A stretch of DNA of 64,000 bases from Enchytraeus crypticus. Lineage: Eukaryota > Annelida > Clitellata > Enchytraeida > Enchytraeidae. The DNA is taken from assembly GCA_905160935.1 (NCBI GenBank), contig CAJHZI010000518.1:507001-571000 (forward strand). Direction: 5' to 3'. A program made the translations under genes and the position numbers. Shown in pieces: positions 25,163 to 48,509 of the stretch; position 1 is the first letter of the stretch, and each line of letters begins with the position of its first letter. The notes under the pieces were generated by a model. It had not been told where the DNA came from. It did not search any database and saw only the letters and a list, made by a program, of their open reading frames with translations.

Positions 25163-25345
25163 CTAGTATTTGAATAGGAAGCTAAGCAGGAGAGTGATGA
25201 GAATGGCTGACGGTAGCAATCTGCTTCCTGCATTGTATTTGTTTAGCGGTGTGATGAGGCAGCAGCCCAGCCTCGCTCCAGCATTACCAGTCGTATTACT
25301 TGTAGGAGCGTTGCCCTTTCCCAAATCATCCTCCATCTCATGAAC
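25163..25345 (-). CDS. Tandem SOD exon 9: end of domain 2 and GPI-anchor signal
   Basis: 183 nt including TAG, acceptor cctgtgccag|GTTCATG. Encodes [29 protein letters not shown], then a spacer with small residues (NAGS) and a hydrophobic end [18 protein letters not shown] with almost no cytoplasmic tail, typical of a GPI-attachment signal. A single-pass membrane anchor is the alternative reading. Confidence 0.87.
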   Translation of the reverse strand, partial: VHEMEDDLGKGNAPTSNTTGNAGARLGCCLITPLNKYNAGSRLLPSAILITLLLSFLFKY

Positions 25346-26753
25346 CTGGCACAGGCAAGACATCAAATAAATAGGGTTTCTGAATAACTATATTGCATAT
25401 TATCATCATTATCATCCTCACTTAAATCCCAGTTTAATCAGGGTCGGGATACGAATAGACTTTCTTTTATCCATTCGTTTAAGTATAAGTATTGCGTATA
25501 AGTTTACATTTTTGTAACAACTAGATAGTCATTCAGGATGATATCTATCACTTAATACCTTGTTTAAACCGCTTCAAAGTCTATTGTGAAATGCATAATT
25601 TTCTATTTTTCTTTGGTTGCACACATGCCGTTACGCTACTACTATAGTTTCCTGGTTTAAGTTTACCTTTTGTGATTCTTTTGTAATTCTCTGTTTTCTT
25701 GATTATTAATAATCGTTGCGCTTAATCGATTACGAGCAACGCAGTGTAATATATAGCACTGAATAACTTTCCAACACCCTGGGTTATTTATTCAAACCTG
25801 TCACCACTTGGTTTTTCAAGGTGGTCACGCACCCAAGTGCTCACCGGGCCCGACGCTTCTTAACTTCGTATATTACAGGCAATCTCTCAATAATGGGCAA
25901 AATCCATTTACTCCTCCCCGTTGGTGAATAAAAATTTACCGGTCCTGATAACATTTGAAAGTTCACTGATAAATTTGAAAGTTCACCGATAATATTTCAA
26001 CGTCTCATCAGCTGCTAGAGCTTATTCTACCTCAGGATGATTGGCGTGCAATTTCAAATGATACCTTCACCACAAGAAACTTTGCACTTTTTAGCAGTTT
26101 TAAATTAAATGTAACAAATTAAATTACATAGAACCACAGTACTCAATTGAATAACTTATGGTCAACTTCCACAATAAATTTTGTGATGGAAAAGCGAAAC
26201 TGATCTAATAGGAAATTCAGAGCAGATTGGTAATCAGATTCTATCACAAAACTATCTTTCATTCCTCCCTTAATCATATGATAATCTTGATGCTATACTT
26301 CTTAGTCCCTGCCTATGGGAACAATGCTATTGATCTCATGGAATGAAAATAAGACAAAATCAAATGTGTTAATAAATCACAATAGTTCAGTTGCTATTGC
26401 CAATTGGTGAACAGGTGACATAATTTTTCCTCTTCTTAGTATTCTCTCGTACGTATTTATTTTCAAAATAAAATAAGTTTGGGATTAACGGGAGGAAGAA
26501 GTTGATGATGATGATAAAAATAAGTTTGCGTATCATATTCTATTAGTAATCATACAGTTCTCCAACCGCTGAATCGCTGGTACGCTATCGAGCAGATTAC
26601 TAACGTTAAATCAGTCCTTTAGGTTATATATTATTCTCTAACATCGATTTCTGCAGTTTACTATTATTCTGTTTACTGGTTTAAATAAGGACTGCGCGGC
26701 TAAATTTAAACAAAGTATTAGTAGCGATATTATATTCCTTCGCTTTATCTCTC

Positions 26754-26795
<42 letters not shown>

Positions 26796-29682
26796 ACTCG
26801 CTAGTGTTCTGTAAGTGGCAGTTTCAAGGTCCACTTGCGTATTCAGAGTCTGCTTTTACGCTTCATAAAGGGCACTCCGTAAATCAACAAATTATTAATC
26901 CCTTCACAAAGGCTATGCCTTATGCATACCTCAAGTAGCCTCTAGTGTGATAAAATGGCTTCTGAGATGATCTCCCGTTACCTTCCTCTGTTCCTCTGTA
27001 TTTTGCTTAGTAGCCTCTCACGAAATGTACATTAAAGGTTGGACTATTCTTCAATGTCCCGGACATTACACGGTGATATATATATCATTACGTGATATTA
27101 ATTGCTTATTTGTTTAAACGATTATGATTAATTATTTAATTTCTTACCACAATTGGTTTTCCAAGGACAGAGTTCTCACCAGTCAGACTGATAAGCCAAT
27201 CGGATATTATAACAGCAACATTACCGTCAGCATCCGCCTGAATATTACCCAAGTCTCCTGTATGTCTGTGGAAGCAAGATAAAATATTTAATATTCTCCA
27301 AGGGATGAAAATTAACAAAATCAAAGTTAAAAAACACTGCAATTTTAAATTAAATCTGATATTCCATGTATTTAGTTTACGGCACATTCTACAACAGAGC
27401 ATTGAATGCAAGATATCTACATAAATTTCATTGATTTCAAGAAAGCGTTTGACATCATCCAGAGAGATACTTTATGGAAAATAATAAAAAGCTATGGAAT
27501 TCCTGGGAAATTCACAGATTTTTTAAAATTATTATCTAAAAACTCGTCGTGCAACATAAGAACACAAACGGGGGTCACTGACTCTTTCAACATTGTGACA
27601 GGAGTTAGACAGGGATGTATTTCATCACCATTTCTTTTACTTCTAGTGATTGATTCTGTAATGAGAAAGGCTTTTGAAGAAAGAGAATGGGGAGTAAAGT
27701 TGGGTCATAGGAAATTAACTGACCATGATTTTGCAGACGATATAGCTTTACTAGCAAACAACAGTCATAAACTGCCAGAAATGACATCAGCATTAGAAGA
27801 AATTGCTTCGAAAGTTGGATTAGTAATTAGCACTGAAAAGACAAAAATCCTCACAACTCCAGAGACAGACATATTCACGATAAGAGTTCATCAAAGCGAG
27901 GTTGAAAGGGTAAAAAAGCTCAAGTATCTAGGCAGTACGATATCGCAAAGTGGATCAAGTGAAAGAGATGTGGAGTGTAGAATCGGTAAAGCATATGACG
28001 TATTCCAAAAGCTCAAAAGCTCCAGTATATTTGGAAGAGTAATAAAATTGAGAAGCAATTAAAGATAAAAATTTATTCAACAATTATTCAACCAGTTTTA
28101 ATGTATGCATGTGAAACCTGGGAAAGTACTAATAAAATAAAGCAAAAATTAAACTGTTTTTAACAAAGATGCCTCAGAAGAATTTTAAATATCCATTATT
28201 GGGACCATGTCAAAAATGAAACAGTACTCGAAAGGAGTGGACAAAGAAAATTAGATGAAATAGTTTCTGAGAGAAGGTTGAGGTTTTTAGGTCATTTACT
28301 GAGAATGTCTGAGGATATATACGCAAAGACTGCAGTTAACTGAAAGCCAACTCAAGGAAAGAGGAAACGAGGAAGACCTAGAAGTACTTGGCTAAATACG
28401 ATCAACATGAGAGCATTTAAACATTTCATGAGAAGACGCTGTGAAGTTTGCTGATTATAGAAACGAATGGAGGAATGTTGCCGCCCTTCGTTCTGTACAG
28501 AACTCAAGGAACTGATGATGATGATGCTGATGATATTCCTGGTATCGTTTTGTTTATTCCATGCCATGCAGTACAAAGTGTGCGGCTTGGATTAATAATA
28601 AACTTCCATCACCTTGAGAATTTTATTCAAACCTGTCAGCACTCGGTTTATTTATGTTTTCTGCTCCGACAATATGAAACTCTCTGTCACAAGATCTTCG
28701 ATCTTGTCACAAGATCTTCGATCTTGTCACAAGATCTTCGATCTTGTGACAGAGAGTTCCATATTGTCTTGTGACACTCGGTTTATTTATGTTTTCTGCT
28801 CCGACAATATGGAACTCTCTGTCACAAGATCTTCGATCTTGTAATCGTATTGATACTTTCCTTGGCAATCTAAAAAAACATCTTTTTCCGCCATGGGTCA
28901 AAATTTTGACCCGCTTGCCTTGTATCTTGGGCTTGCACTGTTTTGATCTCGCTTTCTCTTGTGGTCTCTTAGTACTTAGTCGTGTGGTGCTTTGGCGACT
29001 CTTTGTGTAGAGTCTGCAAGAGACGTACCTGACATTGTCTTATGCGAGGAACCGTACGTTACATTCTTATTGAGAGATTGATTCATCCTAAACAATATTA
29101 TTTGAAAGTCAAGATACCCGCGCACTGGTCACATAATTAAGGTGACTTCATGAGCACGAACCTGTTCTGTATGGAGTCATAGGGAGCTCCATGTAGAGTC
29201 TGAAGGAGGTTGAGGTGACCGGCAGCCTCGTTACACTGGGAGCCTATGGAAGCATTGGCGTGCACGTGGATCCCGTGGAGTCCTACTGGAGTAAGCTTGT
29301 TAAGAGTTATATCCAAAGTCACGTTACCTCCTTCAGCCTATTACCAGCACATGTATGTTTTTATCAACAACATCTATACAGGCAAGTTTATTAACAACTT
29401 CTAGATGTATACAGGCAAGTTTATCAATAACATTTATACATGCACGTTTACAAATAATATCATAAAGGTGTGATTATAAACAACATTTATACAGGTGTGT
29501 TTATCAACAACATCAATACAGGTGTATTTAACAACACCACCAATACAGGTGTGTTTATCAAAAACATCTATACAGGTGTGCTTTTCAACATTGACTATAC
29601 AAGTGTGTTTATCAGAAACTTATATACAGATCTGTTAATCAACAATATCTATGCAGTATGATATTAATATTGTCTATATATT

Positions 29683-29732
<50 letters not shown>

Positions 29733-29813
29733 TATATATATCTATAATTTTCCTCTTTAATATATATAATATATATATACTTGCATATATATATATACAT
29801 TATATATATTTAG

Positions 29814-29903
<90 letters not shown>

Positions 29904-30953: not shown

Positions 30954-31000
<47 letters not shown>

Positions 31001-33701
31001 ATTGCTTTGATATACCATTATTCTTGGGGGATTCTGCTTATGATCGACGATTACTAATATAATATATGTTAATTCATTTATCTTCTCTTCAACTTAGCGG
31101 ATGTGGCACTCATTCAACCATTGCTTAGCCATCACTTGCCTATTTACTGCGTTACGAGTTGTGTTATAGCGAGCATGGCCGAGATTATTTAAATTTGCTG
31201 TGAACTTCGGCCGAATGGTAGTTTCTATTCGGCCGACAACATACATGTTTGTGAAGTGAAATTGTTACGCCATATACCCTCTCTTAATTAATAAAAAATT
31301 ATTACAATTAATTAATTAATTATTAATTTATTAATAATTTATTTATTAGACGATTTTTAGTTTAAATTAGTTTATTTGATGGTTTATCCGCTGTTTCTGT
31401 CATTCCTTTCGTTTTAATTCTCATATTTTGTTCTGTTCTTTTGAATTTTGGTAAATAAAGACCACATATTTTAGTAATAAATTGCAATTAATAAGTTAGT
31501 TAATTATTAATATAATTTTGTAATGATTAATATATGCAGAGATATATGCTTTTAACTTGAATTCAAGCGTCAGTTTCATCACTCGAAATGAATTCGGGAC
31601 TGACGTCACGACAAATTTACTGATATCCGGTCAGCAGTTTAACATAGGCTCAGCGTTATGCCGATTTAAGGACGGGTTAATCACATCAATCACGCAGGTG
31701 CTGATGTCGCCGATCAGAGATCAATGAATTAACTGTTTCATCATTATATCAGATCTTGAAGCAATGTTGATAGAATGGATAATTGATCTCAAGTGTTGAC
31801 CAATTCAAGTCCTACAGCGCTAAGTAAGAGTCAGCTGAGTATTGAAATCATGCTACTATATTAGAGCAGACAGTATTATTCAGGCTAGCACTTAATCCAG
31901 TCTACGTGTCCGGGAGCGCGTGCTTTAATATTGAATCAACATCAAAATCTTATCCGATCACTTATAGAATAACTCTTCAAATTTCTTATACAATCATATT
32001 TCTAATGTCAGGACTACTCGAGTTTACTTCATTACACAATTGGGCCTACAATCCTACACGAACGTGTATATACTAACAATCACTTTCAACAGCATCAGAA
32101 TGTAAGCATTGCCACCGCACGTAAGCGCTATCTTAGAGAGAATTTGGTATAAATTTATGAAATTGTTAATTAAATAAAAAACACTTACTTTATAGTGTTT
32201 TATTCAAAAATACAAACCAGTATAGTTAGTTAAAAACTAAAGTAATTCTAAAACTTACCAATTCAAGCATTTAACTAAGTAAATCGAACTATGAAAAATG
32301 TGAATAACTAAAAAAAAGTTTAAAAAACGATAGCAATTTCTCAAAAAATAGTTTTATTCCTCTGTAATTTCCTAATGAGACGACGAGCGCTCAAAATGGC
32401 TCATAATTATCCTGAAAAGCAATATAATTAGGGCACCTTCAGCTTATCGGTATCAATTGTAAGCATATTACTTTATTGGTTAATTTGTTTCAGATTCTCA
32501 TTTATTTAAATGACTTGAGCGTTTTAGTTGCCCTGAAATTAATTCCGTTTTCTTATTCGCTATTGATGCGAAGTATTTTTGCTGCTTTAAATTTCTTATC
32601 TGAATGTGACGCCCTTCAAAAAGTTATTGCATTCTCTTTGCTCTACTCAATGCCATCTTGGGCTTTATGAAAATAAATACCAAGCAATTTATTTTTCTAG
32701 CAAGAGGATTTTATTCACAAATAAATTCTCTTCCTTTGGCAAAAGTTAAGAAAAACTTAAGTTACAGGTTCACAATTATCCGATAAACAATTAGGCCACC
32801 TTCAGCTTATCAATTACATTTTTAAGTGTTTAACCTTATAATTAATTTGTTTTATCTTATCAGCGATCAAGATGCAATAAAGCGGATGTATATACCTCAC
32901 ACAGGCTCTGACAAAAATATCTTAGGACTATTTGTTTTGTCCCTCTATAGGGCATTAGCCTATCCCTATATGGTATATGGTATAGCATTTATTAACGTTC
33001 ATTCTGTACCCACTCTCTTAAAAACTTCTTCATTTGTAACTTCTTGGGTCCAGCTAATCTTTGCCAATCATCTGTGGATATGGAGCAAAATGGGAAAGAC
33101 TAGCTGGACCCAAAAAGTTACAAATGAAGAGAGTGGGTACAGATAGACATTTGATAAAAGTTATAAAAAAAGGAAGAAAAATTGCATAGGACGTGGAAAA
33201 TATCAGAAAATTAAAATATAAAAAATAGGATAAATATCAGAAAAGTTAAAACTTAACGTAAATGCTAATCGAGTATAGTGCATAGAATTCAGCTGACACA
33301 TCATGAAATATTGTCTTGTTGAGAGAATATTAGCCTAGGAGTAGGCGTATAAAATTTATTGGAGTTGTAACCTATTGAAACGTAGAAGTTAGAAGTCTAT
33401 TAGATATATGAACTCACCTGATAGATATCCTGCAGCAATCATTAACACTACAACCTGTGAACTGTGAACAAAACTTCCCATTCTAGATGATCCGGAGATA
33501 AGTGCATGCGAAGAAAATAACGCTTAAAACCTGTATAAGATTGTAAAAAATAATCTTTATTATAGATTAGGTCAAATGTATTTTCTTGGTCCATAACATA
33601 CATGCAGAATGTCAGATTGCATTATATACAGAACATTCAAAGCTACATGTATAATATACTGTACAAAGCTTGCTGATAGTAAATATGCACACGCATAATA
33701 T

Positions 33702-33789
<88 letters not shown>

Positions 33790-34880
33790 AATTTTGTGTG
33801 TGTATGTATATATATATATAAGACAACGCACAGGCTGCAGCCAGTGGCGATGTCGGTAAGTTATTCGACCGCGGATAAATATATGCGGGGTTCAAATCCT
33901 GGGCTCGCCTGTCACTGACATCGCTTTCGAGTGAGGAAACTGACGTTAACATTAGCTTTTCTAGCTTTATATATATATATATATATATATATTATGTATA
34001 TGGTGCTCATTATAAATGATCCCTAGCGCAATTGCGATAACTTTGTCAATTCTTGCTATTATGGCATGACATTCTTGTTGACTGTATAGGAGGTATATTT
34101 TCACAAGCTCACCAAATTTTGTATTGTAGAAATATTTTGAAACCGGAGTTATCGAATTTTTACGACAAAAATTGATTTCTTTAATTGAAGTTAGATACTT
34201 ATCAAATTACCTTTCGCGAGTCAAACGGTCAAACTGTTGGGCTGAGACGTGGCTCAGATCAGTTAATAAACACTGCGAGGAAGGTAGGAAGGCTTCTGAG
34301 CTAGATTTTCTATTGTTGATACACAATAGCAACCAAGGATTGAAATTCTCAAGCATAATAATGCTTTTAGCCTGAAGACCGAGTATGAGATATCATACAT
34401 TCAAACCCAAGCCCAGAACATAACCGAAGTAAAGGCTTCAAGGGATCTGGAAAGACCTACCACAGCAGTCCACTGGCAGAGCATTTATAATTGTTAAGAA
34501 AAAGCAAACTACTTCTGACTTGAATCAAAGCTCTGGTCGCTCATTTCGTGTACAAAATGTGCCACAATATCAGAGTCGTCATCATCTTACGGCCTTCTCA
34601 GGGTCAACAATTTTTCAAGTAGAGGCCTATTGACTGTAATTGACATTTCACGTTGCATGTTACATGAAAAATAAATTTGTTTGTAAAACATGGATACATG
34701 GATAACTCCGGTCCCGTTCAAAATATTTCCAAAAATTATGGCGAGCTTGTGAAGAAATTTCTCCTTTTCAGACGACTTGCATTTAAAGAGAAATAGCAAG
34801 AATTAACAAAGTTATCGTAATTTTTCTAATGGATTATTTTTTTAAGGCGCAGCCTGTATATATATATATATATATATTTG

Positions 34881-34916
<36 letters not shown>

Positions 34917-37900
34917 CATATATATATATTATATATATATATATAATATAGTATACAGTATATACATAGATATATAGTATGTTATTCTATGATCTTCTAC
35001 TACACGTGCAGGCACCAGTTGATCAATTCTTCAAACAACCCGGACATAACACGGGGAAAGATAAATGTGAACTATTTGCAATATAAAATAAAAATATTAA
35101 ATGTGCCCATGTGTAAATGAGTACAATTGTCTTTACCATATATATCTTATATAGACATTAGTATTGAACAATTATGACAGCCGAGTAGTACATCACTGGT
35201 TTCAATAAATTTTATTAATGTAGGTGTGCTTCTAAGGAAACTACAGTACCGAAGCTATACAGAAACTATGATGGTACTAGATAACAATCAAGTTATTGTT
35301 ACATTGCTATTTTCACGGCGGGATTAGCGCACTTGGTTTAGTTGCTCGCCAATTATCGAAGTTAAGCTGCATCGACCTCGGTTAGTACTTTATGGGTGAC
35401 CACCTTGGAAGACCGAGTGTTGGTAAAAGCTTAGGAATAAAAAATCCCATGGTGATGGAAGGTTATTCTTAAATCCGCGCCGGCTGCAATTGATGCGCCA
35501 TCAAAAGGCAAAGATTACTAATAACCATGGAGAGGAAGGAGGAAATGGGTCTTAAACAAGCACCTGTGCTTCCTGACCCATTGTGCCGTTATGTTATTGC
35601 TTTAGGTCCAAAATCTACGGGTATGTTTAAGTCTAGAAATCTTGCGGAAGATTGGTCAATATTTGACTTTAAAGCTGATAAATACTACAAATTAATACTT
35701 ATCTATTGTTATTATACTTATCTATTATAGTGGTATTGATCAAGTCATTGTCAAGCCAATAGTACATTACATTTTTCATTTCAGATTATGATCTCAGAGA
35801 TTTCGAGCCTTCATAATTATCTGTGAAAAAATCGAAAAAACTGACATTTTTCCTAAAAACATAAAAACAATTTTCTTTAAAGAAGTAAGCTTTTTCCACC
35901 CCTGATGACAGCTTGTAGGCTATTGATCTCTCTGCTTAGCCGTTATGTAGGTCTCTTTAACTCAGTGAATACCCTTTCGTGTGAACAAGTCTTCGAAACC
36001 TTTCTTCTCAAAAAAGATATGTGAAAATATGATAAATTTATCGACCCTTTCATTTCTATTATTTGTTAAATATACACTGTGCTTGGAAGGGAGTATTTGA
36101 ACAAGATATATATTATTCTTTAGGATTGAATAATATTTTTTTCGTTGTCTGTTCTATGTTGTAAATGGGCCTAAGTAGTAGGCCTACCTGAGAATTGCAA
36201 TGGAAAAACCTGAGGCCACATTTGTTTTAAGCTAAAGGTTACCGGAAGATGTTGTACAGGAATTATCTGCGTAATGGCGTCAAACTATCACTAAAATGAT
36301 ATGATGCGCTCCTTAGTGAGAAATGAAAGTAGACAATGAATAGGATTTTTCAAATTGACCCTAATATTTCGAAATAGGCCTACTAATGAAGATGAGAGAA
36401 ATGCAAATATCATTATAATACCAGTATTTACTTACCGGTACCAATGTAACTTATTTAGTGTACCAATATTTAAGCAGCTATGACCTTTTGCAATAAATTA
36501 ATCAGGCAGAAAATTCTATAGTAACTCTTAATTTCTAATATCACTATGGTGTCTTTGTAAACTTATACATTATACTGTAATTACATGTAGGTAGATAGAT
36601 ATTAGTGATATACATGTAGGTTAACAATATGATACATTTTACTTTACAGTGCTAATCTAGAGAAGGCCAATGATAATACATTATAAAAGTAGTCAACCTT
36701 TTAATCGTTTCACTAGCCTATATACAGTATATATATATACTGTACATGTAGGCCTACTACCACTAAAGCACGTAGATATTTATTTGAAATTTTTAGATGA
36801 CTTTAACTGACCTTGTACAAACTGAATAATTTAGACATTCTACGATCATTCATGATCCATTCTTAGATTTCCTATGAATAGGAGGTTACTCATATCTACT
36901 GCCAAAATACTATGAGATTTTATATCCACAAATATCTTTCAATCTAACTAGTAATTCAATTTCCTGAAAAACTCAATTAAATTTTTTCTCTGTATGCCTT
37001 ATGTCTGTCTGTTGAACCTCTTGCCTTAGACATTGAATTTAATTGTTTCATATCTCCTTTTCTCTTCGACATTTGACTTTTTGTATATCCGCAAGGTCTG
37101 TTAGTCATACACGATGCGATGATACAGTAGTGTGTTTGTAGATAATAGTGGTATGATTTAGATCCGAAGTCCATAAATCATAAGCTAAATCATAGTATGA
37201 TTTTTTCCATTATTCCACAGAAAACTCTAAGATCACTTTTACTACAAAAACGATGCTAAATTCATATTGACTATTAGATTGTCTTCATTGGTTTTACCTC
37301 TTCCAAGATCTTTTGATACTTCGCTTAACTTGAATTCTTTGGTTATGCTAGTTGCAAGATTCTGGTTCAGGTGCGGCAAAGGAAGACAATCAATATACAT
37401 ATAGAAAGAGTAAGGAGTTAACGAAATACATTTTTATTGCATGCTTAGATAAACGATATACGAGTCTTGAAATCTGACATTAGACCGAGAGTCCTTTATT
37501 TTATTTTATTTATTTATTCATTTATCACACGCATTCCACATGAGCTACATGACAAATGTTCAACCATAGAAGAAAAAAGTGTATGAATGGAAATAAAGGC
37601 CTTGGTGAGGCACTTACATATTCCGAGAGGATAAATCGTAGGAACCAAATTATATGCGCATTAAAACACATATCAGATAAATTTAGTAATTTACGCTTAT
37701 TCCATTGAGTCTCTTAAAACAGTTGAGAGATAAATAAAAGTTAAAAATTACAGTGAATTATATGTGAAGTTACAATCAAAGGTCCTTGATTACCACTAGC
37801 AAATATCACTCGAATTTACTTGATGATTTAGAGTAATATAAAAGCAACAGAATAACGCACTTAGCTTGAACGAGAACAATAAGAGGTTATATATATTGTC

Positions 37901-40900
37901 AAAGCGAGTAGCAATTTCTTATAAATTTGCTAAGACCAGTTTCGTAACTTTCGTTAAGCCTTTTCTTAAAAGAATTAAAAGAGGGGCAATCGATTAACAT
38001 ATCTCAGATGATAACTAAGTTAAATTCGATATGAAAGATGTTCATAGTTACACCCGCACTGTTACATTTGCTTACGTATAGAGCTTACACATAGAAGTAA
38101 GTATAGAAAGTAAAAGTAATAGTAATAACCATGCAGATTTAAACAGATAAATAGTTAAATCTCGTTTTTGAATCAATAATTATATAAAAAAAATAAATGA
38201 TATAATTTCCATAGTGGAGAGAAATGCAGGAAAATATTAATTTCATCAAGCATCTAAAATTGTTCCTTCATGTCATTCAATCTTTTCATGAACATCTTAT
38301 AAGCTCTGTATCTTGTTGCAAGAATTTTTATAGTTACCGTCAAATTCGGGGAGGGGATATAGAGTAACGATTAATGTGTTTGTCTTGGATTCAAATGGCC
38401 TGGTTGTAAAGACCAGGTCAGTCTAAATGATGGATTTCCCCTTTGGTCCTGGGAATGTTAATCTTGTATCGGAGCTTGCTGCCGGTTGTCTCTATCACCG
38501 ACCTTCTTCAAACAATCTGTTATATCTCCTTTGCTAAAAAAACGCCTTCTCTACCAAAAGATGATCTTTCCTGTTCTATCTCCAATCTTAACTTCCTTTC
38601 TAAACTTCGTGAAAAGGTAATTTACACCCGTTTATGCACTCATCTTGATTCTTTCCCTTCTCTCTCTCATTATCAATCTGCCTATAGAAAACTCCGTTCT
38701 ACTGAAACCGCTCTTCTTCGTATCCATAATGATATTAGCTTGGCCATGAGTAGTAAACAGGTTTCTGCCTTTGTCCTTTGTTCTTCTAGATCTCTCTGCT
38801 GCCTTAGATACAATTGATCATGGCATCCTAATAATTAGGCTTAAATCCTGTTTTGGCATTTCTGATTCTGCTTTTTCCCTTCTCACATCAAATCTCTCAT
38901 GTCGCACACAATCGGTCGTTAGTGGTCAAAATCGCTCTTCTGAACTACCCCTCCTACGCGGTGTTCCACAAGGTTCAGTATTAGGTCCATTACTCTTCTC
39001 TTTATATATCAATCCTCTTAGCTACCTGCTTGCTTAGTCCTCCATAAATTTTCACTTCAATGCAGACGACACACAACTATATATTTCCTTTTCTAATCAT
39101 GATTCCGATCAGAAACTAACTCATCTCTGATCCATTCTAGACCAGATTTATTCCTGTTTTAGTGCTAATTGTCTTGCTGTTAATCCTTCCAAAACTGAAT
39201 ACCTTTTAATTGCCACTCCTTTGCAAAAAAGGAAAATTACTAATAACTCTGTTAATTTTCTAAATTTTGTTCTTTCCCCTGCTCGATCAGCCAAAAACCT
39301 GGGTGTTATCTTTAATGAAAAACCTTCATATCAAATCCAACATCTCTTCCGTCTGTCGCGCTACTTTCTTTTAGATTCGTCAGATTAGGCAAATACGTCC
39401 ATCCCATGCCAGAAATTCAGTCACAATTCTTGCAAATTCTATTGCTCATTCTAAGCTTGATTACTGCAATTCATTATTATATGGATTGCCTTCTTCTTCT
39501 CTCAACCGCTTACAGCATGTCCAAAATTCTCTCGCACGTGTTGTTTGCAAGTCCTGTAGACTTCAATCTCACTCTCTTTCTCTACTTCGCAATCTTCACT
39601 GGCTCCTGTTAATCAATGCATAAAATATAAATTAGCTCTGTTACCTTTCCAAACTCTACGATTTGGGAAGCCTCCTTTCTTATCTACAACTCTTCTTCCC
39701 TATTGTCCTTCAAGTGCACCTAGTTTCACTGATGCTAATCTTTTCTCTTTCTCTGTTACAAATATTCTCACATCTTCGGGCAGACGTTTATTCTCCTATG
39801 CATCACCAACGATCTGGAACTATTTACCTACTAATCTTCGCTGTTGTCCTTCTCTTTCAACTTTCTCTGGCAAGCTTAAGACACATCTTTTCCCACCATA
39901 GTCATACCAAATCTATCCCGACCATTTGATAACCGGACCGGCTTTCACTTAGGACCTTAATTTCTTCTCCTCAGCATACTTATTTTGCAGGTTGGTCTGT
40001 GTAATTCGATCTGTAGTGACGTGTGCTGAGGGGACGTCCCTGATATCATCCTTGGATGAGAAAATGGACGTTAAACTTTTATTATTATTATTTTTGTTAT
40101 CATTATTATTATTATTATTATTATCAACAGCAAAGCTTTAATTAACAATGGAAATTATTAATAATAACCTGTCAGGAACCTTTCAAGTGGTCTCGAAGAC
40201 CGGATACCGGTCATGAGATCTCTATAAAAATTGTCGGAGGTTACTATTATTATTACTGAATATTCAACGTGGTCTGATTTATGTAAGTGTAATGTTGTTC
40301 CTGAGTTCTTGATAATCTTCCAGTATTGGTGTTTCATTTAATTGTGCAACATGCTGAGAGGATGAGTATAACCTTACAGCTGTACTGAGTAGTCTAGAAG
40401 TGCAATGGTGTATCCCCTGATATCGTACAGGTCAGATATTAAATAAATTCGTTTACTAAAAGTTCAATAACTTGGGCAATTATGAACATATCAGCACGTA
40501 TTTTACGTCGTTTTGAAAAGAAATGATTGTTCTTCAAAATAGCGGAAGCAGAAATTTTATGCTACATGTTATCTATTATTTTAATAGAGATAATTTTACG
40601 CTGCATGTAACATGCTCGTAATCCTGTAGCCTACTGAAATTTTTTATCTGACCCCACTCCTATTCGTAAAGCTATAAAGTTCACATTATTAAAGATATTC
40701 AAACGAAATTTCAATATATTTGGGAGAATTGGCTGCAATTTACAGTCAAGTACTGTAAATTTCAAGAACATCGGTCACCTCCCTACGATTGTATTGTAAA
40801 ATTAATGTGGGGTCTCAGTTATAAAAAAAACACAGTGTACATTGATATACTATATATAACAATAATATTTACTGAAAATTTGACCATTTATACTAAGAAT

Positions 40901-43900
40901 TGTTTATTATATTAGTTTGACGTGGAAACAAAAACTCTGGAAAAGTGTTTTTCTTGATAACTTTAATTATTATGAAAATGTGAATAATTTTTATTTTTCG
41001 GGGTGGAAAAATCTAAATTTATTCGACGTGGAAGTAAATAATGATTTTTTACAATTAATTAATAGCAAGTTACAGTCGATGATCAGATGTTGATGTCGGA
41101 GAGAGAAGACTAATTTTAAACTTCTACTTGAATAAAAGAGCACTAAACAAATTCCAACGGAAGAAATCATGGAAGAAATGGAAGAAAGAATAAAAGTAGG
41201 AAGAAAATGTTTACATGATGTAAGATTTACAGATGACCAAGGCTTGGTAGCGGGCAGCGAGACTGGGCTGCAGAAGACAATGGATAGGCTGATTGATACG
41301 GTATTGAGATATAGAATGAAGATTAACATAAAAAAAACGTAAGTGATGAGAGTGTCCCAGAATAAAGGTGAAGTCAACATAACAATAAAATAAAAAGTAA
41401 ACACGCATTATAGTGAAATGATCAACTATGTTGATATCTATCACTTTTAATACCACATGTTTAAACCGTTAGGCAATTTAGTCCATTTTCCTTGTAACTA
41501 GTCCAGTGAATGTCCGAGATTTTACTCTCAGATCAGCGCGGCTGGGATTCGAACCCGCAAGAGTTCAATTCACTTCAGGATCTGCCATTTAAAGCTTCAT
41601 GACGTTACCCCTACGCTATTAAGACATTCTAAAATGTACGTAATTGGAACATACAAGGAGTTCTAAATATTTAGGTCATACTATAACAAATGAGAAAGGC
41701 GTATTGAAGGAAGCTGGGCCCACCTCGTCATTTGCAGAATCCCCCAAAAGCAATGGTATATCAAAAGGAATGTTATCGATGATTTAAAGGTCCACTAGTT
41801 TGTGTGTATGAAGAGGAAAACGGAAGAGAATGATGAGTGCAGGCGTTATATACCATGGACCTGCCAGTAGGCAGTGCACTAAGAGAGAGAGAGAGAGAGA
41901 TAACAAATGATGTGAAACGTGGGACTGAAATATGTAGGAGAATTGCAGAAGCAAAAGAGGACTTCCGTAATAGTAAAGAACTTTTAACAAAAAGTCTAAA
42001 GACACGAAGATAAAGATAGTGAAAACCTTGGTATGATATGATATGACCACGCTTTGATATGGATGTGAAACATGGGCCTTGTGAAAGGAAAATTACATGT
42101 ATAGGCTTTGGAAATGTGAATATGGAGAAGAATGAAAAGGATTAGCTGGACTCTAAAGGTTAAAAATGAGTAAGCTCTGGGGAGAGTTGGTACAGATAGA
42201 CAGTCGATAGATGTATTAAGAAGTAGGAAGAAGAGTTGGATAGGAAACATTCTAAGGGGGAAAAGTATACTAAAAGAGGTCATAGTAGGTAATTTTATCC
42301 AAGACAATCGAATGGTTAATGAAATCCATAGGGTAAAGACATCATCACAAAATCTAAATAAAATTCCCTTTGGCATTGCATCCACTATTTATTTTTCTAT
42401 CGAGCTTTGAATTTAATACTGTGTAATATTTTCCTTTTCATCTCTGAAATTATGCAATATCTTTATTTGATGCTTCTATAAAAAGCTAATAATAGGAAAA
42501 CTAAAATATGTATAATAAAAAACAAATCAAACAAATGTCAGAGATAATTTACTCGAACCTTGTTTTACATTAATTATTCATTAATTGAAATTAATTTGCT
42601 TAAGTCGATCTTAAGCAAAGGATTTAGAATATTGTATGCTTAGGGTCTTCTAGAGATAGAACGTTTGGCTAGAGATAGAAGCTAGATTCTAGAATCTAGA
42701 GACAGAATGTTTGGCTAGAAGATGCTTTTTTCCTATTCCTTCTGCTCCTCCTGAACTTTCTGACTGGAGTCACAGCCTGTCTAATCCTCAAGTCGTTGTC
42801 ATGTACCTCACCGATCAAGCAGCATCCTACTCTCCCTCCTGCATTTCCCGTCGTTTTGCTCGTAGGAGCACCGCCTCTACCCAGGTCATCCTCCAAATGG
42901 TGGACCTGTGCAGACATCACCAGCAATACACGTTGAGTGAATAATTGAATGTCTTTAATAGCTTAGAGGTAACGTCATTAAGTTTTAAATGAGAGATCCT
43001 GAGGTGAATTGAAACCTTGTGGGTTCGAATCCCAGTCGCGCTGATCTGAGAGTAAAATCTCGGACATTTACTAGACTGGTTTTACGGAAAATATTCTAAG
43101 TTGCCTAACGGATTAAACATGCGGTTTTAAAAGTGATAGATATCAACACAGTTGATCATTTCACTATAATGAGTCTTTACTTTTTGCACGTGCAAATTTA
43201 AGTGACTCTCCTAGGATTCTGCAAATACTATTTTTCAAATATTATTATTCTGCAAATATTATTTATAGAAAATTATTATTCGCAAGAAGGCTAAGTGTTC
43301 ATGAAGGCTAATATATTGTACGTATTGCTAATGTATTGTTCGTTGACTGACTAATAATAGGAAAACTAAAATATGTATAATCAAAAACAAATCAAGCAAA
43401 TGTCAGAGATAATTTACTCGAACCTTGTTTTACATTAATTATTCATTAATTGAAATTAATTTGCTTAAGTCGATCTTAAGCAAAGGATTTAGAATATTGT
43501 ATGCTTAGGGTCTTCTAGAGATAGAACGTTTGGCTAGAGATAGAAGCTAGATTCTAGAATCTAGAGACAGAATGTTTGAATTGACTATTCAATGAACATG
43601 AAAATGCCCGATTAAATAAAAATGTGTGCAACATTACAACATGTCAATGTTATTTGGATTTCACTAGTTTATTAACTGTGTCTGTCGTAACCAGCAGCAA
43701 CACTTAGTTACCATATCGGTAAAAATTGCATATGATATTTTCAAGACATTAGCAGGAAGAGCTGGCATACTGGAAGAACAGAAAAAATGTAAATGAATGA
43801 TTATTTAATTTCTTACCACAATTGGTTTCCCAATGACAGAGTTCTCACCGGACAGACTGATAAGCCAATCGGATATTGTAACAGCAACATTTCCATTAGC

Positions 43901-46900
43901 ATCAGCTTCAATGTTGCCCAAATCTCCCGTATGTCTGTGGATTCATTCAAAATTCAATAAATCTATCAATAGATAATGAATTAAATCGTCACTCTATTCA
44001 AAATGTCATAGTAGAGCAAAAGGATCGACGTAATTCAAGTTGCGTAAAATGACTCAAAGTTCAAAGCTTATGTAGCATATAGATTTTGACTGTTTAGATT
44101 AAGAGCGGCCTATACATGTACAAGACACCAGTAACGCATAGCAATCATAGCCACATAGCTTCTGGCAAATGTATAGCTACATAGCTTCTGTCACACATAG
44201 TCACATAGCTTATGGGACATACATAGCCGCATAGATTCTATCATACATAGACAATAGCTTCTGGGACATGTGTAACTTCATAACTTCTGTCACACATAGC
44301 CACATAGTTTCTAGGGCATGCATAGCTGCTCTGTCACACATAGTCACACATATGTGTGACAGTCACACATAGTCACACTATGTGAATATGTGTGTGACAG
44401 AAGTGTCACACACATATTCACATAGCTTCTGTCACACACATAGTCACATAGCTTCTGTCACACACATAGTCACATAGCTTCTATCACACATAGCCACATA
44501 GCTCTGTCACACATAGCCACATACATGTAGCTTCTGTCACACATAGAGTCACATAGCTTCTGTCACACACATAGTCACATAGTTTCTGTCACACACATAG
44601 CCACATAGCCATTGACAGACTGACATCGTCGATATTGTGACTTGAATGACAAAGTCATCGTAACCCCTGAACCAGTGTATTAAGTTTAGGACAGAGCCTG
44701 CTTTAATCGCTTAAAAAAGATCTTAAAGTTTATTGTGGCTCGGGTGCCTGAAAATAAGATCTAAAGAAGATAACGTATAGCTAAAGGTTTGAAGAAAAGC
44801 GAAACCTATTTTCCTTGGGGTCATAGGGAGCTCCATGTAGAGTCTGGAGGAGGTTGAGGTGACCGGCAGCCTCGTTACACTGGGAGCCTATGGAAGTATT
44901 GGCGTGTACGTGGAACCCGTGGAGTCCCGATGGCTTGAGACCATGAAGAACTACTTCCAAAGTTACGTTAGCATCGTCCGCCTAAGTTAAAAAGTGATGC
45001 AACAAGATAAATCTATCATCAGCTGCAATTGAGTTCATTCATTCTTTAAACTGAACGAATTTTAGTGTACAAAATCAAATGACTTTCAAGAATTTACAAA
45101 GTATCAGAGGATATTAGCGATGCAGATATCTGGGCCCCTTGCACTGTTTCAAATAGCACAGATTATTTGGTTATATTTTCAAGAATTGACGTGAACTTCG
45201 CTTATATTTTAATTATGCAAAAAAATACATTAGAATTTGCATAATCAAACTTAATCAATAATCAGTACAATTTTAAAGTACGAAGCGGTATACAAAGTTA
45301 TTCTTGTGTAGATATATAAAAGTATTTTGTAATTGTTTAGTGCCATTTTAAGGAAATTGCTTAAAAACACAAATTCTGAAAAAATTTAAGTTGTCTTCTA
45401 TATGCACTTGTCCTAAGTAGCCTATTAGTAAAAAAGATTTTCCTGCCTAACGATGAATACACTCATCATCAGCATCTTGCATTGTAGTTTAGATAAGCGG
45501 GGGATACGAATAGACCTTCTCCGCTTCTCTGTGTGGAGCGCGTAATTTTTCCATTCGTTTTAGAAAATTTTGTAGCTTCCATGTATTTCTGGAGCTCTAC
45601 AACCGAATGCCTTTTCTGACGCTGGTTGGATCTTAGTGCTTTATCACCTTTTACGACAGTGCAGTCAACGGCTGTTCTAACCACATCAGAAGCCATTTGA
45701 TTTCCCATGCTATAGGCTACGTAATGTATGGGTGAGATATAATCCTTTTTGGAAGGGATTGACTTGTTGATCTAGAGCCCTTTTTGGATTGTCAAAAGCA
45801 GACTGACATAAACCGCTCAGTGTGTGGCCCTGCCACTTGGCAGACAAATTGAGAGAAATAGATTTAGAACGGCATATACATGTAGCAAGCAGATTTCATA
45901 ATAACCGCTGGTTGATGGACATTAAAACTTTTGAAAGCCGCAAATAATACCAGACACTGAATCTTTTTACATCCCCAGCAAATACCTGAGTAAAAATTAA
46001 TCTTCTTTCCTGATGGCGCATCGATTCAGTACTTCTATAACTAAAACTACTGCTATTAATACTACTAATTCAACCAAAACTTCTGCTATTAATACTACTA
46101 ATTCAACTAAACTACTGCTATTAATACTACTAATTCAACTAAAACTACTGCTATTAATACTACTAATTCAACTAAAACTACTGCTATTAATACTACTAAT
46201 TCAACTAAAACTTCTAATATTAATACTACTAATTCAACTAAAACTTCTGCTATTAATACTACTAATTCAACTAAAACTACTGCTATTAATACTACTAATT
46301 CAACTAAATACTACTGCCATTATTACTACTAATTAAACTAAAACTACTGCTATTAATTCTACCAAATCAACTAAAACTACTGCTATTAATACTACTATTA
46401 CAAGTAAATCTCTGCTGCTATTCTGCTGCTACTCCTTCTATTACTAATAAAACTACTGCTATTAATACTACTAATTCAACTAAAGCTACTGCTATTAATA
46501 CTACTAATTCAACTAAAACTACTGCTATTAATGCTACCAAAACAACTAAAACTACTGCTATTAATACTACTATTACAAGTAAATCTCTGCTGCTATTCTG
46601 CTGCTACTCTTTCTATTGCTGCTGCCGCCGCTACTGGTGCTACTGCTGATGCTGCTGATGCAGTTACAACATCAACTCAAAAGTTGATGTTTAAGTGAAC
46701 TTGTCCTTTACTATATACACGTAAGTCTAGGTTATAGTAATCCAGATAGCCTACCGCTTGAGCGAGGAAGATGGATCCATGTACGGATCCTGCTCCACTT
46801 CCGCTCTCAATGACACAGGTCGCTCGTATTTCTCCTCGTCGTCCAAACCACGCGTCACCTGCTCAGCGATGTGTTCAAACATACAGACGTGAGCGCATGC

Positions 46901-47537
46901 TGGGTTACTCTATTCAATACTTTAGCTAATCGAGGAGTGTAAAAATAAGATAAAACTTAGGCAAAAGGTTTCACAATACAGATATCTTGCTAAAGGGTTT
47001 AAGAGTATCGGCTATTGAAATGAAATCTTTTGATAAAACAATTTTTGTGATAAGGGATGGCAAAATAGCTAGAGGTTAGAGCACCAGATAGCGTAGTTAA
47101 TGGCCATTCCTGGGACCTTAAGGTCATTCTCAGTCGAGACGTTCAGAGAGTAAGACCTCTGTAGTTCACAGGACTGGTATCTGAACCGCTGAGCACAAAA
47201 ATGATTTATTGTTCAGCATATAATTATTCTCTATGTTAGACCATTGTGTTATTAATAACACAAGTTTATGTTAATGCTTATGTTAGTAACACCAATTGTT
47301 TAAAGTTAATTAATAGCACCAGTAACTTAACGTTAACTATTAACATCAGTTAATTAACACCATTTATTTATTGTTTATTAATAACAACAATTAGTTCATG
47401 TTAATTAGTAACACCAGTTTATTAATACTAATTAGTAACATAAGTTAACTGATGTTAATGAGTACAATTGTAACTATACCTGACAAAAAGGTTGTCGCCG
47501 TTACTAATAGAAATGTCAATGCCTCGCAACCTCTCAT
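25163..47537 (-). CDS. Secreted, GPI-anchored tandem Cu/Zn superoxide dismutase, nine exons
   Basis: Predicted to dismutate superoxide to O2 and H2O2 outside the cell, held at the surface by a lipid anchor. Exons (minus): 47480-47537, 46755-46858, 44806-44981, 43817-43934, 42812-42905, 30155-30252, 29162-29337, 27148-27265, 25163-25345. They join in phase to 1125 nt, 374 residues. Residues 1-20 are a signal peptide ([20 protein letters not shown]). Domain 1 covers about 25-183 and domain 2 about 190-345. Each keeps the Cu ligands (H78, H80, H95, H154; H240, H242, H257, H316), Zn ligands (H95, H103, H114, D117; H257, H265, H276, D279), active-site Arg (R177; R339) and disulfide cysteines (C89/C180; C251/C342). 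Extra cysteines C34/C181 and C196/C343 could form a second bridge, as in other extracellular SODs. The C-terminus (357-374) is hydrophobic after NAGS, as in GPI signals. Domain content is firm; the anchor is inference. Confidence 0.9.
25700..25890 (-). mobile_element. 5S rRNA-derived SINE, diverged
   Basis: Reverse complement reads ttaagaagcgtcgggcccggtgagcacttgggtgcgtgaccaccttg, a 5S-like control region, followed by aaccaagtggtgacaggttt and ccaacaccctgg-type body. More diverged than 6356-6632. Confidence 0.65.
26747..27075 (+). mobile_element. Dispersed repeat family E
   Basis: (TC)n run, ctagtgttctgtaagtggcag, ttcacaaaggctatgccttatg, ggcttctgagatgatctcccg, gcctctcacgaaatg, aatgtcccggacattacacgg. 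Copies at 49022-49322, 56190-56495 and 63735-64000. The pair ctatgccttat / cctcttacgacac resembles conserved 3' modules of known invertebrate SINEs, but I cannot confirm this. Confidence 0.6.
27148..27265 (-). CDS. Tandem SOD exon 8: domain 2 zinc site
   Basis: 118 nt, acceptor ttccacag|ACATAC, donor GTG|gtaaga. Encodes [20 protein letters not shown] then [20 protein letters not shown]. The first ~17 intron bases after the donor are the same as after exon 4. Confidence 0.92.
27406..28520 (+). pseudogene. Non-LTR retrotransposon reverse transcriptase fragment in SOD intron 7
   Basis: Open for 218 codons (27406-28062) then degenerate to about 28520. RT motifs: [44 protein letters not shown] with the FADD catalytic pair, and [20 protein letters not shown]. 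Downstream frames give [32 protein letters not shown] and [13 protein letters not shown], the usual end of this LINE type. It is 5' truncated: the endonuclease and N-terminal RT are missing. It lies antisense to the host gene. RTE-like or CR1-like cannot be decided by eye. Confidence 0.8.
28600..28650 (-). mobile_element. 5S-SINE body fragment
   Basis: aacttccatcaccttgagaa and caaacctgtcagcactcggttt match the reverse-oriented body of the 5S SINE family (compare 11930-11985 and 25765-25815). Confidence 0.5.
28668..28768. repeat. 101-bp palindrome with three nested 20-bp palindromes
   Basis: gacaatatg...catattgtc ends invert almost perfectly. The centre is three head-to-tail copies of CACAAGATCTTCGATCTTGT, each itself a palindrome around TTC. 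A direct repeat (ggtttatttatgttttctgctcc) lies on both sides. Confidence 0.9.
28770..29080 (+). pseudogene. CR1-type LINE 3' end
   Basis: Encodes [17 protein letters not shown] then [15 protein letters not shown], the standard C-terminal signature of CR1/Rex-type LINE proteins (APxIWNxLP...FKxxLKxxLF). It continues as 3' UTR-like sequence (gcaagagacgtacctgacattgtctt). 5' part is missing. Confidence 0.65.
29162..29337 (-). CDS. Tandem SOD exon 7: domain 2 copper/zinc loop
   Basis: 176 nt, acceptor gtaatag|GCTGAAGG, donor AACAG|gttcgt. Encodes [20 protein letters not shown] with the copper pair in GIHVHA, then CNEAAGH and LHGAPYD. Same size as exon 3. Confidence 0.92.
29370..29650. repeat. Degenerate tandem repeat, about 32-33-bp unit
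   Basis: Repeats of the form ttatcaacaacatctatacaggtgtg, about eight imperfect copies. In intron 6 of the SOD gene. Confidence 0.75.
29680..29900. repeat. (TA)n microsatellite block
   Basis: Three TA tracts with short interruptions (atgtattatata, cttgcatatata, tacatata). ORFs of I/Y repeats here are artefacts. Confidence 0.95.
30155..30252 (-). CDS. Tandem SOD exon 6: start of domain 2
   Basis: 98 nt, acceptor ttttgtttctaatcgacag|GTCAGG with a good pyrimidine tract and branch-like ctaat, donor CCG|gtatgt. Encodes [19 protein letters not shown] then [13 protein letters not shown]. Phase 1 entry equals that of exon 2, so exon 5 splices into it and the two domains are joined. Confidence 0.87.
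33003..33145. repeat. Fold-back inverted repeat from a LINE fragment
   Basis: Left arm tctgtacccactctcttaaa... with tttgtaacttcttgggtccagct; right arm is its inverse (agctggacccaaaaagttac...gagagtgggtacaga). Arms are about 60 bp with a loop of about 30. The text matches the LINE stretch around 42140-42200. Confidence 0.8.
33830..33969 (+). mobile_element. tRNA-related SINE family A, full copy between (TA)n tracts
   Basis: gcagccagtggcgatgtcgg, gcggggttcaaatcctggg, and the tail catcgctttcgagtgagg...attagcttttctagcttt, flanked on both sides by TA microsatellite. Confidence 0.78.
34000..34855. mobile_element. TA-flanked element with long diverged inverted repeats
   Basis: Left arm about 34027-34165 contains gcgataactttgtcaattcttgctat, ttcacaagctc and gaaatattttgaaaccggagttatc. 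Right arm about 34690-34830 is the reverse complement with changes (tcgtaat region, gcaagaattaacaaagttatcg, gcgagcttgtgaag, ggataactccggt). Both sides abut (TA)n, so a TA-target MITE-like element is possible. No transposase. Confidence 0.65.
34985..35060 (+). mobile_element. Family E repeat, 3' fragment
   Basis: cttctactacacgtgcagg, then cccggacataacacgggg, matching the 3' end of the family-E copies. Confidence 0.4.
35315..35592 (+). mobile_element. 5S rRNA-derived SINE, full copy
   Basis: Nearly identical over its length to 6356-6632: cggcgggattagcgcac, gaagttaagctgcatcgacc, cggttagtactttatggg, gtgaccaccttggaagacc, then the shared body to cattgtgccgttatg. Confidence 0.82.
38420..40090 (+). 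pseudogene. CR1/Rex-type LINE, RT and C-terminus, broken by frameshifts
   Basis: Pieces in order: [92 protein letters not shown] and [13 protein letters not shown]...LKTHLFP. ADD of the RT active site is present (in another frame), so the copy is dead. The end is a 3' UTR-like run (ggacgtccctgatatcatcc) and an attatt tail. The endonuclease is not seen, so it is 5' truncated. Confidence 0.8.
41392..41632 (-). mobile_element. tRNA-related SINE family B
   Basis: Reverse complement: B box-like gcgggttcgaatcccagcc, gatctgagagtaaaatctcgg, acattcactggactag, gtgatagatatcaacatagttg, atttcactataatgcgtg. Confidence 0.78.
41806..41903 (-). mobile_element. Family D SINE-like repeat
   Basis: gtgtatgaagaggaaaacgg, ataccatggacctgccagtaggcagtgcactaagagagag, the inverse of 61584-61690. 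Confidence 0.65.
42486..42713. repeat. Direct repeat copy 1 of about 228 bp flanking SOD exon 5
   Basis: Runs from ctaataataggaaaactaaa to gagacagaatgtttg. Partner at 43351-43579 differs at only a few bases, so the duplication is recent. The two copies sit on either side of exon 5. Confidence 0.9.
42696..42811 (-). CDS. Possible readthrough tail of SOD domain 1 (basic C-terminus)
   Basis: If the exon-5 donor is not used, the frame stays open for 38 residues to TAG at 42696. The tail contains [13 protein letters not shown], strongly basic, recalling the heparin-binding tail of vertebrate extracellular SOD. An AATAAA on the minus strand (42462-42467) lies about 230 nt further on, but such hexamers are common in AT-rich DNA. 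The last codons fall in a duplicated non-coding segment (42486-42713), which argues for plain intron. An alternative isoform is speculative. Confidence 0.25.
42812..42905 (-). CDS. Tandem SOD exon 5: end of domain 1
   Basis: 94 nt, acceptor tgcacag|GTCCACC, donor ATCG|gtgagg, phase 1. Encodes [31 protein letters not shown]: the last copper ligand, the electrostatic loop and the conserved Arg. The reading frame continues past the donor to a stop at 42696, see the readthrough entry. Confidence 0.88.
42958..43186 (+). mobile_element. tRNA-related SINE family B
   Basis: ggtaacgtcattaagttttaaa, B box-like gtgggttcgaatcccagtc, gctgatctgagagtaaaatc, tagatatcaacacagttgatc. Inserted just upstream of SOD exon 5. 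Confidence 0.78.
43351..43579. repeat. Direct repeat copy 2
   Basis: Near-identical partner of 42486-42713; both include the internal near-palindromes ttgcttaagtcgatcttaagcaa and tagattctagaatcta. Confidence 0.9.
43817..43934 (-). CDS. Tandem SOD exon 4: domain 1 zinc site
   Basis: 118 nt, acceptor ccacag|ACATAC, donor GTG|gtaaga. Encodes [20 protein letters not shown], then [20 protein letters not shown], ending where the HTGDLGN zinc residues lead into the VVH copper ligand. Same length and borders as exon 8. Confidence 0.92.
44120..44615. repeat. Minisatellite, unit about 26 bp (cacatagcttctgtcacaca)
   Basis: About 18 imperfect copies of tagtcacatagcttctgtcacacaca in SOD intron 3, with an inversion in the middle (see palindrome 44378-44425). 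Confidence 0.85.
44378..44425. repeat. 48-bp palindrome inside the minisatellite
   Basis: Arms of 21 bp (ctatgtgaatatgtgtgtgac and its exact inverse) around a 6-base loop agaagt. Confidence 0.92.
44806..44981 (-). CDS. Tandem SOD exon 3: domain 1 copper/zinc loop
   Basis: 176 nt, acceptor aacttag|GCGGAC, donor AATAG|gtttcg. Encodes [20 protein letters not shown] with the copper ligands in GFHVHA, then CNEAAGH and LHGAP. Same length and phase as exon 7; the 3' part is almost identical to it at the DNA level. Confidence 0.92.
44982..46754 (-). other. SOD intron 2
   Basis: AT-rich; apart from the minisatellite at 46030-46640 I see no element. A 79-codon minus-strand ORF (45469-45708) has no recognisable domain. 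Confidence 0.5.
46030..46640. repeat. 33-bp minisatellite (ACT/ATT-rich), two blocks
   Basis: Units of about 33 bp: aaaactactgctattaatac then tactaattcaact. About nine copies at 46030-46395, more at 46445-46600, ending in gct-rich triplets. The T/N/S/K- and L/I-rich ORF here is an artefact. Confidence 0.88.
46755..46858 (-). CDS. Tandem SOD exon 2: start of domain 1
   Basis: 104 nt, acceptor gagcag|GTGACG, donor GCG|gtaggc. Encodes [14 protein letters not shown] then [18 protein letters not shown], the first strands of the SOD barrel. Homologous to exon 6 and two codons longer. The acceptor has a poor pyrimidine tract. Confidence 0.82.
47480..47537 (-). CDS. Tandem SOD exon 1: signal peptide
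   Basis: ATG at 47537, 19 codons plus one base, donor TCAG|gtatag, phase 1. Encodes [19 protein letters not shown], with a hydrophobic core as in a secretory signal. The phase matches the acceptor of exon 2. An acceptor-like tacag just upstream suggests a 5' UTR intron. Confidence 0.78.
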
Positions 47538-47766
47538 CCTGTAGAATCTGAAGAATCTAGAAGAGTCTATCTTGTATTTCTAAAGACAAAATACTCAGAT
47601 TATATACTTATATATATACTGTAGACTGCAGTGTAGACTGGGCATGAAATTGCACATTTAAAAAATGTATAAAATTACGTTTTTTTTAGCTAGTAGGTAT
47701 GATAAAATTATTGCATTTTCAAGTTAATTAGTCCATATAGTAGGCTAATATGATTAACTTCGACTA

Positions 47767-47769
<3 letters not shown>

Positions 47770-47849
<80 letters not shown>

Positions 47850-47912
47850 TACACAGTATATACATGTATATATATACATGTATATTTATATTATATATAA
47901 ACTGTATAGATA

Positions 47913-47955: not shown

Positions 47956-47956
<1 letters not shown>

Positions 47957-48474: not shown

Positions 48475-48477
<3 letters not shown>

Positions 48478-48509
<32 letters not shown>

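What the first reader, a model, noticed from the sequence alone, without database searches (positions are those of the whole stretch)
25163..47537. Complete two-domain Cu/Zn SOD gene predicted to be secreted and GPI-anchored
Nine exons spread over 22 kb join in phase to one 374-residue protein with signal peptide, two SOD domains each retaining every copper, zinc, Arg and disulfide residue, and a GPI-like end. Most animal extracellular SODs have one domain; the tandem SOD-repeat proteins known in animals are often described with metal-site losses. Two apparently active domains on a surface anchor is an unusual architecture.
Basis: partly seen in the sequence, partly recalled or inferred. Interest (0 to 1): 0.78.

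Follow-up and report, generated by a model that had tools for sequence, protein, structure and literature searches.

The report
Tandem pair of extracellular SOD genes
The stretch read as one double-headed surface antioxidant enzyme is more likely two neighbouring, ordinary single-headed secreted superoxide dismutase genes of a small soil worm, one with a membrane-anchor tail and one with a strongly basic tail.

Summary
They join to a 374-residue frame with two Sod_Cu domains, all checked catalytic and metal-site residues, a signal-like N-terminus and a hydrophobic C-terminus. The inference of one gene is weak. The 12.6-kb gap between exons 5 and 6 holds an overlooked candidate first exon (33481-33418, minus): Met, signal peptide and near-perfect donor, in phase for exon 6. 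None as good arose in 500 shuffles or 533 kb of background strand. Exon 5 runs on past the proposed donor to a stop at 42696, giving a basic tail (11 Lys/Arg in 38). That makes two five-exon genes of 221 and 212 residues, the size of the closest relatives and the layout of a third paralogue in the same genome. The assembly matches Enchytraeus crypticus. Best reading: tandem single-domain extracellular Cu/Zn SODs, B membrane-anchored, A secreted with a basic tail. A fused transcript is not excluded: the exon-5 donor is good. Two-domain SODs with both sites intact are already in databases, so the architecture would not be unprecedented.

The parts
47480..47537 (-). gene A exon 1: signal-like peptide [19 protein letters not shown], phase-1 donor CAG|GTATAG
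46755..46858 (-). gene A exon 2 (alternative acceptor gives 46834-46755, same phase)
44806..44981 (-). gene A exon 3 (His46, His48, Cys57, His63, His71)
43817..43934 (-). gene A exon 4 (His80, Asp83); holds an internal decoy donor at 43848 scoring higher than the exon-5 donor
33418..33481 (-). gene B candidate exon 1 (not in the finding): [21 protein letters not shown], phase-1 donor CAG|GTGAGT, A at -3 and G at +4 of the ATG
33482..42695 (.). 9,214 bp between gene A stop and gene B start; holds a reverse-transcriptase fragment at 38750-39034 (E 8e-9) and a weak, below-cut-off one at 41136-41339 (E 0.008)

Best explanation
Two tandem, single-domain, secreted Cu/Zn superoxide dismutase genes on the minus strand of an enchytraeid annelid (very probably Enchytraeus crypticus). 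Gene A (47537-42696; 221 or 213 aa) makes a secreted SOD with a basic C-terminal tail. Gene B (33481-25163; 212 aa) makes a SOD with a hydrophobic, GPI-like tail. Both should dismutate superoxide outside the cell by ordinary Cu/Zn SOD chemistry; the tails would place the enzyme, B on the membrane and A by binding acidic matrix or cell-surface glycans. Shown: the exons, domains, active-site residues, the extra candidate first exon, the open tail and the single-domain paralogue. Inferred: secretion, anchoring, glycan binding, activity, and that transcripts follow the two-gene model.
For: Its join to exon 6 reads ..YLSGQ.., by eye like the ..LSG.. junction of gene A and the ..SGQ.. of relatives P0013, P0016 and P0121. 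Exon 5 is open to 42696 and very basic: 13% of 20,000 random 38-codon stretches (given strand of the loci only) are open, and 0 of the 2,667 open ones have 10 Lys/Arg in 12. Predicted lengths of 212-221 aa match ten close relatives (P0008, P0010, P0013, P0015, P0016, P0018, P0019, P0021, P0025, P0121: 204-246 aa, one SOD stretch each). The third paralogue (C793/C792) has one domain in the 20 kb examined on each contig, matching exon boundaries and a GPI-like tail on its last exon. Of 40 listed hits with a GCC[LVIA]I motif, only P0010 has a strongly basic tail (net +8), so such a tail is rare but not unknown.
Against: The exon-5 donor is good (9.68) and in phase; such donors occur at 0.26 per kb in background (0.010 expected in phase within 117 nt), though two others lie inside these genes' own 1,241 nt of exon (by my arithmetic about 0.06 expected in phase). 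At loose thresholds a signal exon is not rare: 0.44 per 12.6 kb at donor >=4.9, which is all that gene A's own exon 1 reaches, and 0.126 per 12.6 kb at donor >=10. Candidate exon 1 of B shows no significant DNA homology to exon 1 of A (local score 43; 200 shuffles mean 33, max 59). The last six codons and stop of A lie in a 228-nt local duplication. The basic-tail statistic was chosen after seeing the tail. AATAAA at 42467 is of little weight: by my arithmetic about one in three for 250 nt of such AT-rich DNA. No transcripts were examined.
Confidence: 0.75

Rival explanations
1. One nine-exon gene makes a 374-residue secreted, GPI-anchored protein with two active Cu/Zn SOD domains; the tandem copies fused by splicing around the old tail of copy 1 and the signal exon of copy 2.
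For: Frame and phase join perfectly; the exon-5 donor (9.68) and exon-6 acceptor (1.0, among the two best of eight) are good; two-domain SODs with both sites intact exist elsewhere.
Against: Leaves the 33481-33418 signal exon unexplained; none of the ten closest full-length relatives taken for comparison is two-domain, and the 24 listed proteins with two intact domains are at most 49% identical, although one search admitted 206-654 aa; the paralogue is single-domain as far as seen; needs a 12.6-kb intron against 0.6-1.9 kb for the others. In-phase joining is not independent evidence, because any two copies of this gene share the phase-1 exon-2 acceptor.
Confidence: 0.15
2. Both: two genes that also yield a read-through, spliced chimeric mRNA encoding the two-domain protein in some tissues.
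For: Candidate start exon, stop and exon-5 donor are all present.
Against: No direct evidence; the donor may be a decoy like those inside exons 4 and 8.
Confidence: 0.08
3. Gene A alone is alternatively spliced at 42812 to its own hydrophobic tail exon, as in Drosophila Sod3 and C. elegans sod-4.
For: Precedent in PMC4274663 (passages); a donor sits exactly at the end of the domain.
Against: 0 hydrophobic terminal-exon candidates in intron 5 against 4.6 expected by chance under the same filter.
Confidence: 0.02

Closest known systems
Invertebrate extracellular Cu/Zn SOD with secreted and membrane-tailed forms (Drosophila Sod3, C. elegans sod-4; PMC4274663, passages)
   Same: Signal peptide, one Cu/Zn SOD domain, form with a hydrophobic C-terminal tail beside a form without it
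   Different: There the two forms come from alternative splicing of one gene; here most likely from two tandem genes, and the form without the anchor has a basic tail
Vertebrate EC-SOD (SOD3)
   Same: Secreted Cu/Zn SOD with a Lys/Arg-rich C-terminus (human SOD3 as described in PMC4828634, passage), like the tail of gene A
   Different: Gene A's tail is not shown to be homologous or to bind heparin; the beetle enzymes of PMC4828634 lack such a tail
[quoted passage not shown]
   Same: Extracellular, often GPI-anchored, repeated SOD domains
   Different: CSRPs have 4-12 repeats and lack the Zn site and loop VII (three-repeat candidates in Hyotissa, PMC12784942, passages); here two domains with Zn ligands and loop VII intact, probably in two proteins
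Single-domain relatives from metagenome sets (P0008, P0121, P0013, P0016; no organism given)
   Same: 54-63% identity, signal-like N-terminus, GCCLI/GCCII end, GPI-like tail, 204-237 aa
   Different: Host organism unknown; one domain each

Membership tests
Sod_Cu (PF00080), active Cu/Zn SOD | Domain match above curated cut-off | tested here: met
   241.8 bits against cut-off 28.9, two stretches
Sod_Cu (PF00080), active Cu/Zn SOD | All Cu and Zn ligands, catalytic Arg and disulfide Cys | tested here: met
   11 of 11 in each domain
Sod_Cu (PF00080), active Cu/Zn SOD | Superoxide dismutation | not testable with these tools
   needs protein
CSRP | Four or more Cu-only repeats in one chain | tested here: not met
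   at most two domains
CSRP | Loss of Zn site and of loop VII | tested here: not met
   His71, His80, Asp83 present in both; the EDDLG..TGNAG loop present in both
Two-domain SOD in one chain (reader) | A transcript joining 42812 to 30252 | not testable with these tools
   no RNA data; competing exon at 33481
GPI-anchored protein (gene B) | C-terminal hydrophobic signal after a small-residue site | tested here: inconclusive
   tail [25 protein letters not shown], best 10-residue hydrophobicity 2.93; no GPI predictor run
SOD3-like matrix-binding SOD (gene A) | Basic C-terminal tail after the SOD domain | tested here: met
   11 Lys/Arg and 3 Asp/Glu in 38 residues, under the two-gene model
SOD3-like matrix-binding SOD (gene A) | Heparin binding | not testable with these tools
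   needs protein

The most novel reading that the evidence does not exclude
A tethered two-headed Cu/Zn SOD with two complete, apparently active metal centres is made at this locus, as its main product or by read-through splicing beside a secreted, basic-tailed SOD (A) and a GPI-anchored SOD (B). Annelids would then reach by splicing across tandem genes the placement that mammals reach with a heparin-binding tail and flies and nematodes with alternative tails.
Probability: 0.23. Interest if true: 0.5.

Novelty: new member of a known kind. Interest (0 to 1): 0.27.

Why it matters
It shows how an in-phase join across tandem duplicates can pass for a new protein architecture; several database 'two-domain' SODs (P0017, P0002, P0001, P0125), by eye, carry an internal Met and signal-like stretch and may be the same artefact. 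If the two-gene model holds, a soil ecotoxicology model worm has an anchored and a basic-tailed extracellular SOD side by side, a simple setting to test how an extracellular antioxidant is placed.

Tried and rejected
Alternative hydrophobic tail exon for gene A: none found. CSRP: rejected on repeat number and intact Zn site. Mollusc origin (my first guess from the simple repeats): rejected; mitochondrial COX1 matches Enchytraeidae and Lumbriculus at 92-93%. DNA homology between the two first exons: not significant. Gene tree of A, B and the third paralogue: unresolved. The 228-nt repeat at the end of gene A as a dispersed element: only the two local copies were found in the genome, with that tool's filter. 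A looser first scan of intron 5 gave a second, poor candidate at 34010 in a microsatellite, and the same loose scan gave 0.16 per kb in intron 5, 0.24 in 47600-64000 and 1.04 in 100-25000; a similar loose scan upstream of the third paralogue gave nine rows, best donor 10.3. At low thresholds the scan is therefore not specific. Paper searches: 'two SOD domains' gave 0 papers, six like phrases gave 1, 'GPI-anchored superoxide dismutase' gave 6; most subscription papers are not in that library. Uniqueness of the gene B first exon in the whole genome could not be checked because the tool stayed busy; it has no second copy in the window or in about 282 kb of other loci held.
Full report
Source. The window is G000:C425:507001-571000 of a 524,188,772-base, 802-contig assembly. 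Its mitochondrial contig C802 is 15,205 bases, and its COX1 is 92-93% identical to Mesenchytraeus, other Enchytraeidae and Lumbriculus. The published Enchytraeus crypticus assembly is 525.2 Mb with 35.4% GC and a 15,205-bp mitochondrial genome (PMC8460440, passages). The species is therefore very probably E. crypticus. The main text of that paper holds no word beginning with 'superoxide' or 'SOD'.

Observation. The nine exons, their borders and the 374-residue frame are as reported. Pfam Sod_Cu matches twice and all 11 checked residues are present in both domains. The two halves repeat the same intron pattern: phases 0, 2, 0 inside each domain, with a phase-1 acceptor before each. This is a duplicated gene. 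Similarity is uneven: exon 3/7 after codon 18 has dS 0.18 (0.71 before it), exon 4/8 0.48 and exon 5/9 2.5, which would fit gene conversion in the middle exons.

The weak link is exon 5 to exon 6. Because each copy has a phase-1 acceptor at its exon 2, a phase-1 donor at the end of copy 1 will always join in frame, so the in-frame join is not itself evidence. I scanned the 12,559-bp gap for what a second gene would need. Under the stricter filter it is the only site with donor >=10 in the window on either strand. In 500 dinucleotide shuffles of the gap, 0 reached this quality, 1 reached donor >=12 and 15 reached donor >=8. In 533,036 strand-bases from 30 loci of the same genome none reached donor >=12; in 400,000 strand-bases of 20 of these loci 4 reached donor >=10 and 14 reached donor >=4.9. 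Gene A's own first exon has a donor of only 4.9 and would not stand out from that background; its place in the model rests on position and frame. Joined to exon 6 the new exon gives ..[19 protein letters not shown].., with the same Ser-Gly at the exon junction as gene A (..TFLSG..) and Ser-Gly-Gln as in relatives P0013, P0016 and P0121 (by eye).

At the other end, exon 5 does not need the donor at 42812. It stays open for 38 residues, [38 protein letters not shown], to TAG at 42696. Of 20,000 random 38-codon stretches (given strand of the loci only) 13% are open, and among the 2,667 open ones 1.65% reach a net charge of +8 and none has 10 Lys/Arg in 12. This measure was chosen after seeing the tail. 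The last codons and the stop lie in a 228-nt segment that has a second copy, 2 mismatches apart, 865 bp away in intron 4 and no further copy found in the genome. Without that segment the frame would still close within a few codons.

Against the two-gene reading, the exon-5 donor is strong (9.68). Such donors are rare in background (0.26 per kb), but these genes' own exons carry internal ones of 10.82 and 9.97 at 43848 and 27179. A decoy, or an occasional read-through splice, is plausible. The first exons of A and B show no significant DNA homology.

Relatives. A search admitting 206-654 residues (1,711 hits, 120 listed) and one admitting about 122-387 residues (5,987 hits, 120 listed) gave 202 different listed proteins. 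I took ten of the closest full-length ones as the comparison set: P0008 (63%), P0121 (62%), P0013 (62%), P0010 (59%), P0015 (59%), P0019 (58%), P0021 (57%), P0025 (56%), P0016 (54%) and P0018 (52%). All ten have one SOD stretch, are 204-246 aa and, by eye, begin with a signal-like stretch; nine of the ten have a hydrophobic tail, and P0010 has a basic one (15 Lys/Arg, 7 Asp/Glu in 64). Other near relatives left out of the set (P0122, P0123, P0124, P0126, P0152) also have one stretch, with short or hydrophobic tails. In the same genome a third gene is split over the start of C793 and the end of C792 (that they are one gene is inferred): one domain in the 20 kb examined on each contig, matching exon boundaries and a GPI-like tail on the last exon. 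Its own signal exon is uncertain. What looks like the cytosolic SOD1 lies on C13. In a maximum-likelihood tree of 33 rows, A, B and the third paralogue fall among these relatives (support 94/91, just short of the tool's mark; midpoint root) without resolving their order.

Multi-domain SODs are not rare in the listings: 46 of 202 proteins had two or more stretches, and 24 of these 46 kept all 11 residues in both domains, at 49% identity or less. Three of the 24 (P0017, P0032, P0035) also have a hydrophobic N-terminus and C-terminus. By eye, P0017, P0002, P0001 and P0125 have an internal Met followed by a signal-like stretch between the domains (sequences), which looks like tandem genes merged in a gene model. 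So the proposed architecture has precedents, and some of those may be the same artefact as proposed here.

Known systems. [quoted passage not shown] I found no separate hydrophobic tail exon in intron 5. A GPI-anchored SOD in an animal is already proposed in Brugia malayi, with Dictyostelium cited as a shown case (PMC6742230, passages).

Mechanism. Most likely both genes make ordinary extracellular Cu/Zn SODs that differ in placement: B held on the membrane by its tail, A diffusing or bound to acidic glycans by its basic tail. Activity, anchoring and glycan binding are inferences. Verdict: a real, intact tandem pair of known kind. A two-domain protein is possible (about 15% as the main product, about 8% as a read-through form; 23% together, as given for the novel case) but not favoured.

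Noticed in passing
42486-42713 and 43351-43578 (-): A 228-nt segment in two copies with 2 mismatches, one in intron 4 and one covering the end of gene A; no other copy found in the genome. Recent local duplication or assembly artefact.
   Followed up: partly
L009 (C793:1-10000) and L010 (C792:119975-129974): A third extracellular SOD gene appears split over the ends of two contigs, suggesting C792 and C793 are neighbours.
   Followed up: partly
L015-L019 (C361, C424, C796, C373, C166): Five nuclear contigs carry COX1-like fragments with stops, probably nuclear copies of mitochondrial DNA (one of the five is below the family's cut-off).
   Followed up: no
27406-28059 (+) in intron 8; 38750-39034 (+): Reverse-transcriptase fragments, probably of LINE elements (Pfam RVT_1).
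   Followed up: no
exons 3/7 (44981-44806 and 29337-29162): Synonymous divergence between the two copies is far lower in most of exon 3/7 than in exon 5/9 (dS 0.18 against 2.5), suggesting gene conversion.
   Followed up: partly
L013 (C370) near 5369-5494 and 6978-7091: Weak Sod_Cu match (E 8e-4, below cut-off) and a weak tblastn match that may be the copper chaperone CCS; the name is a guess.
   Followed up: no
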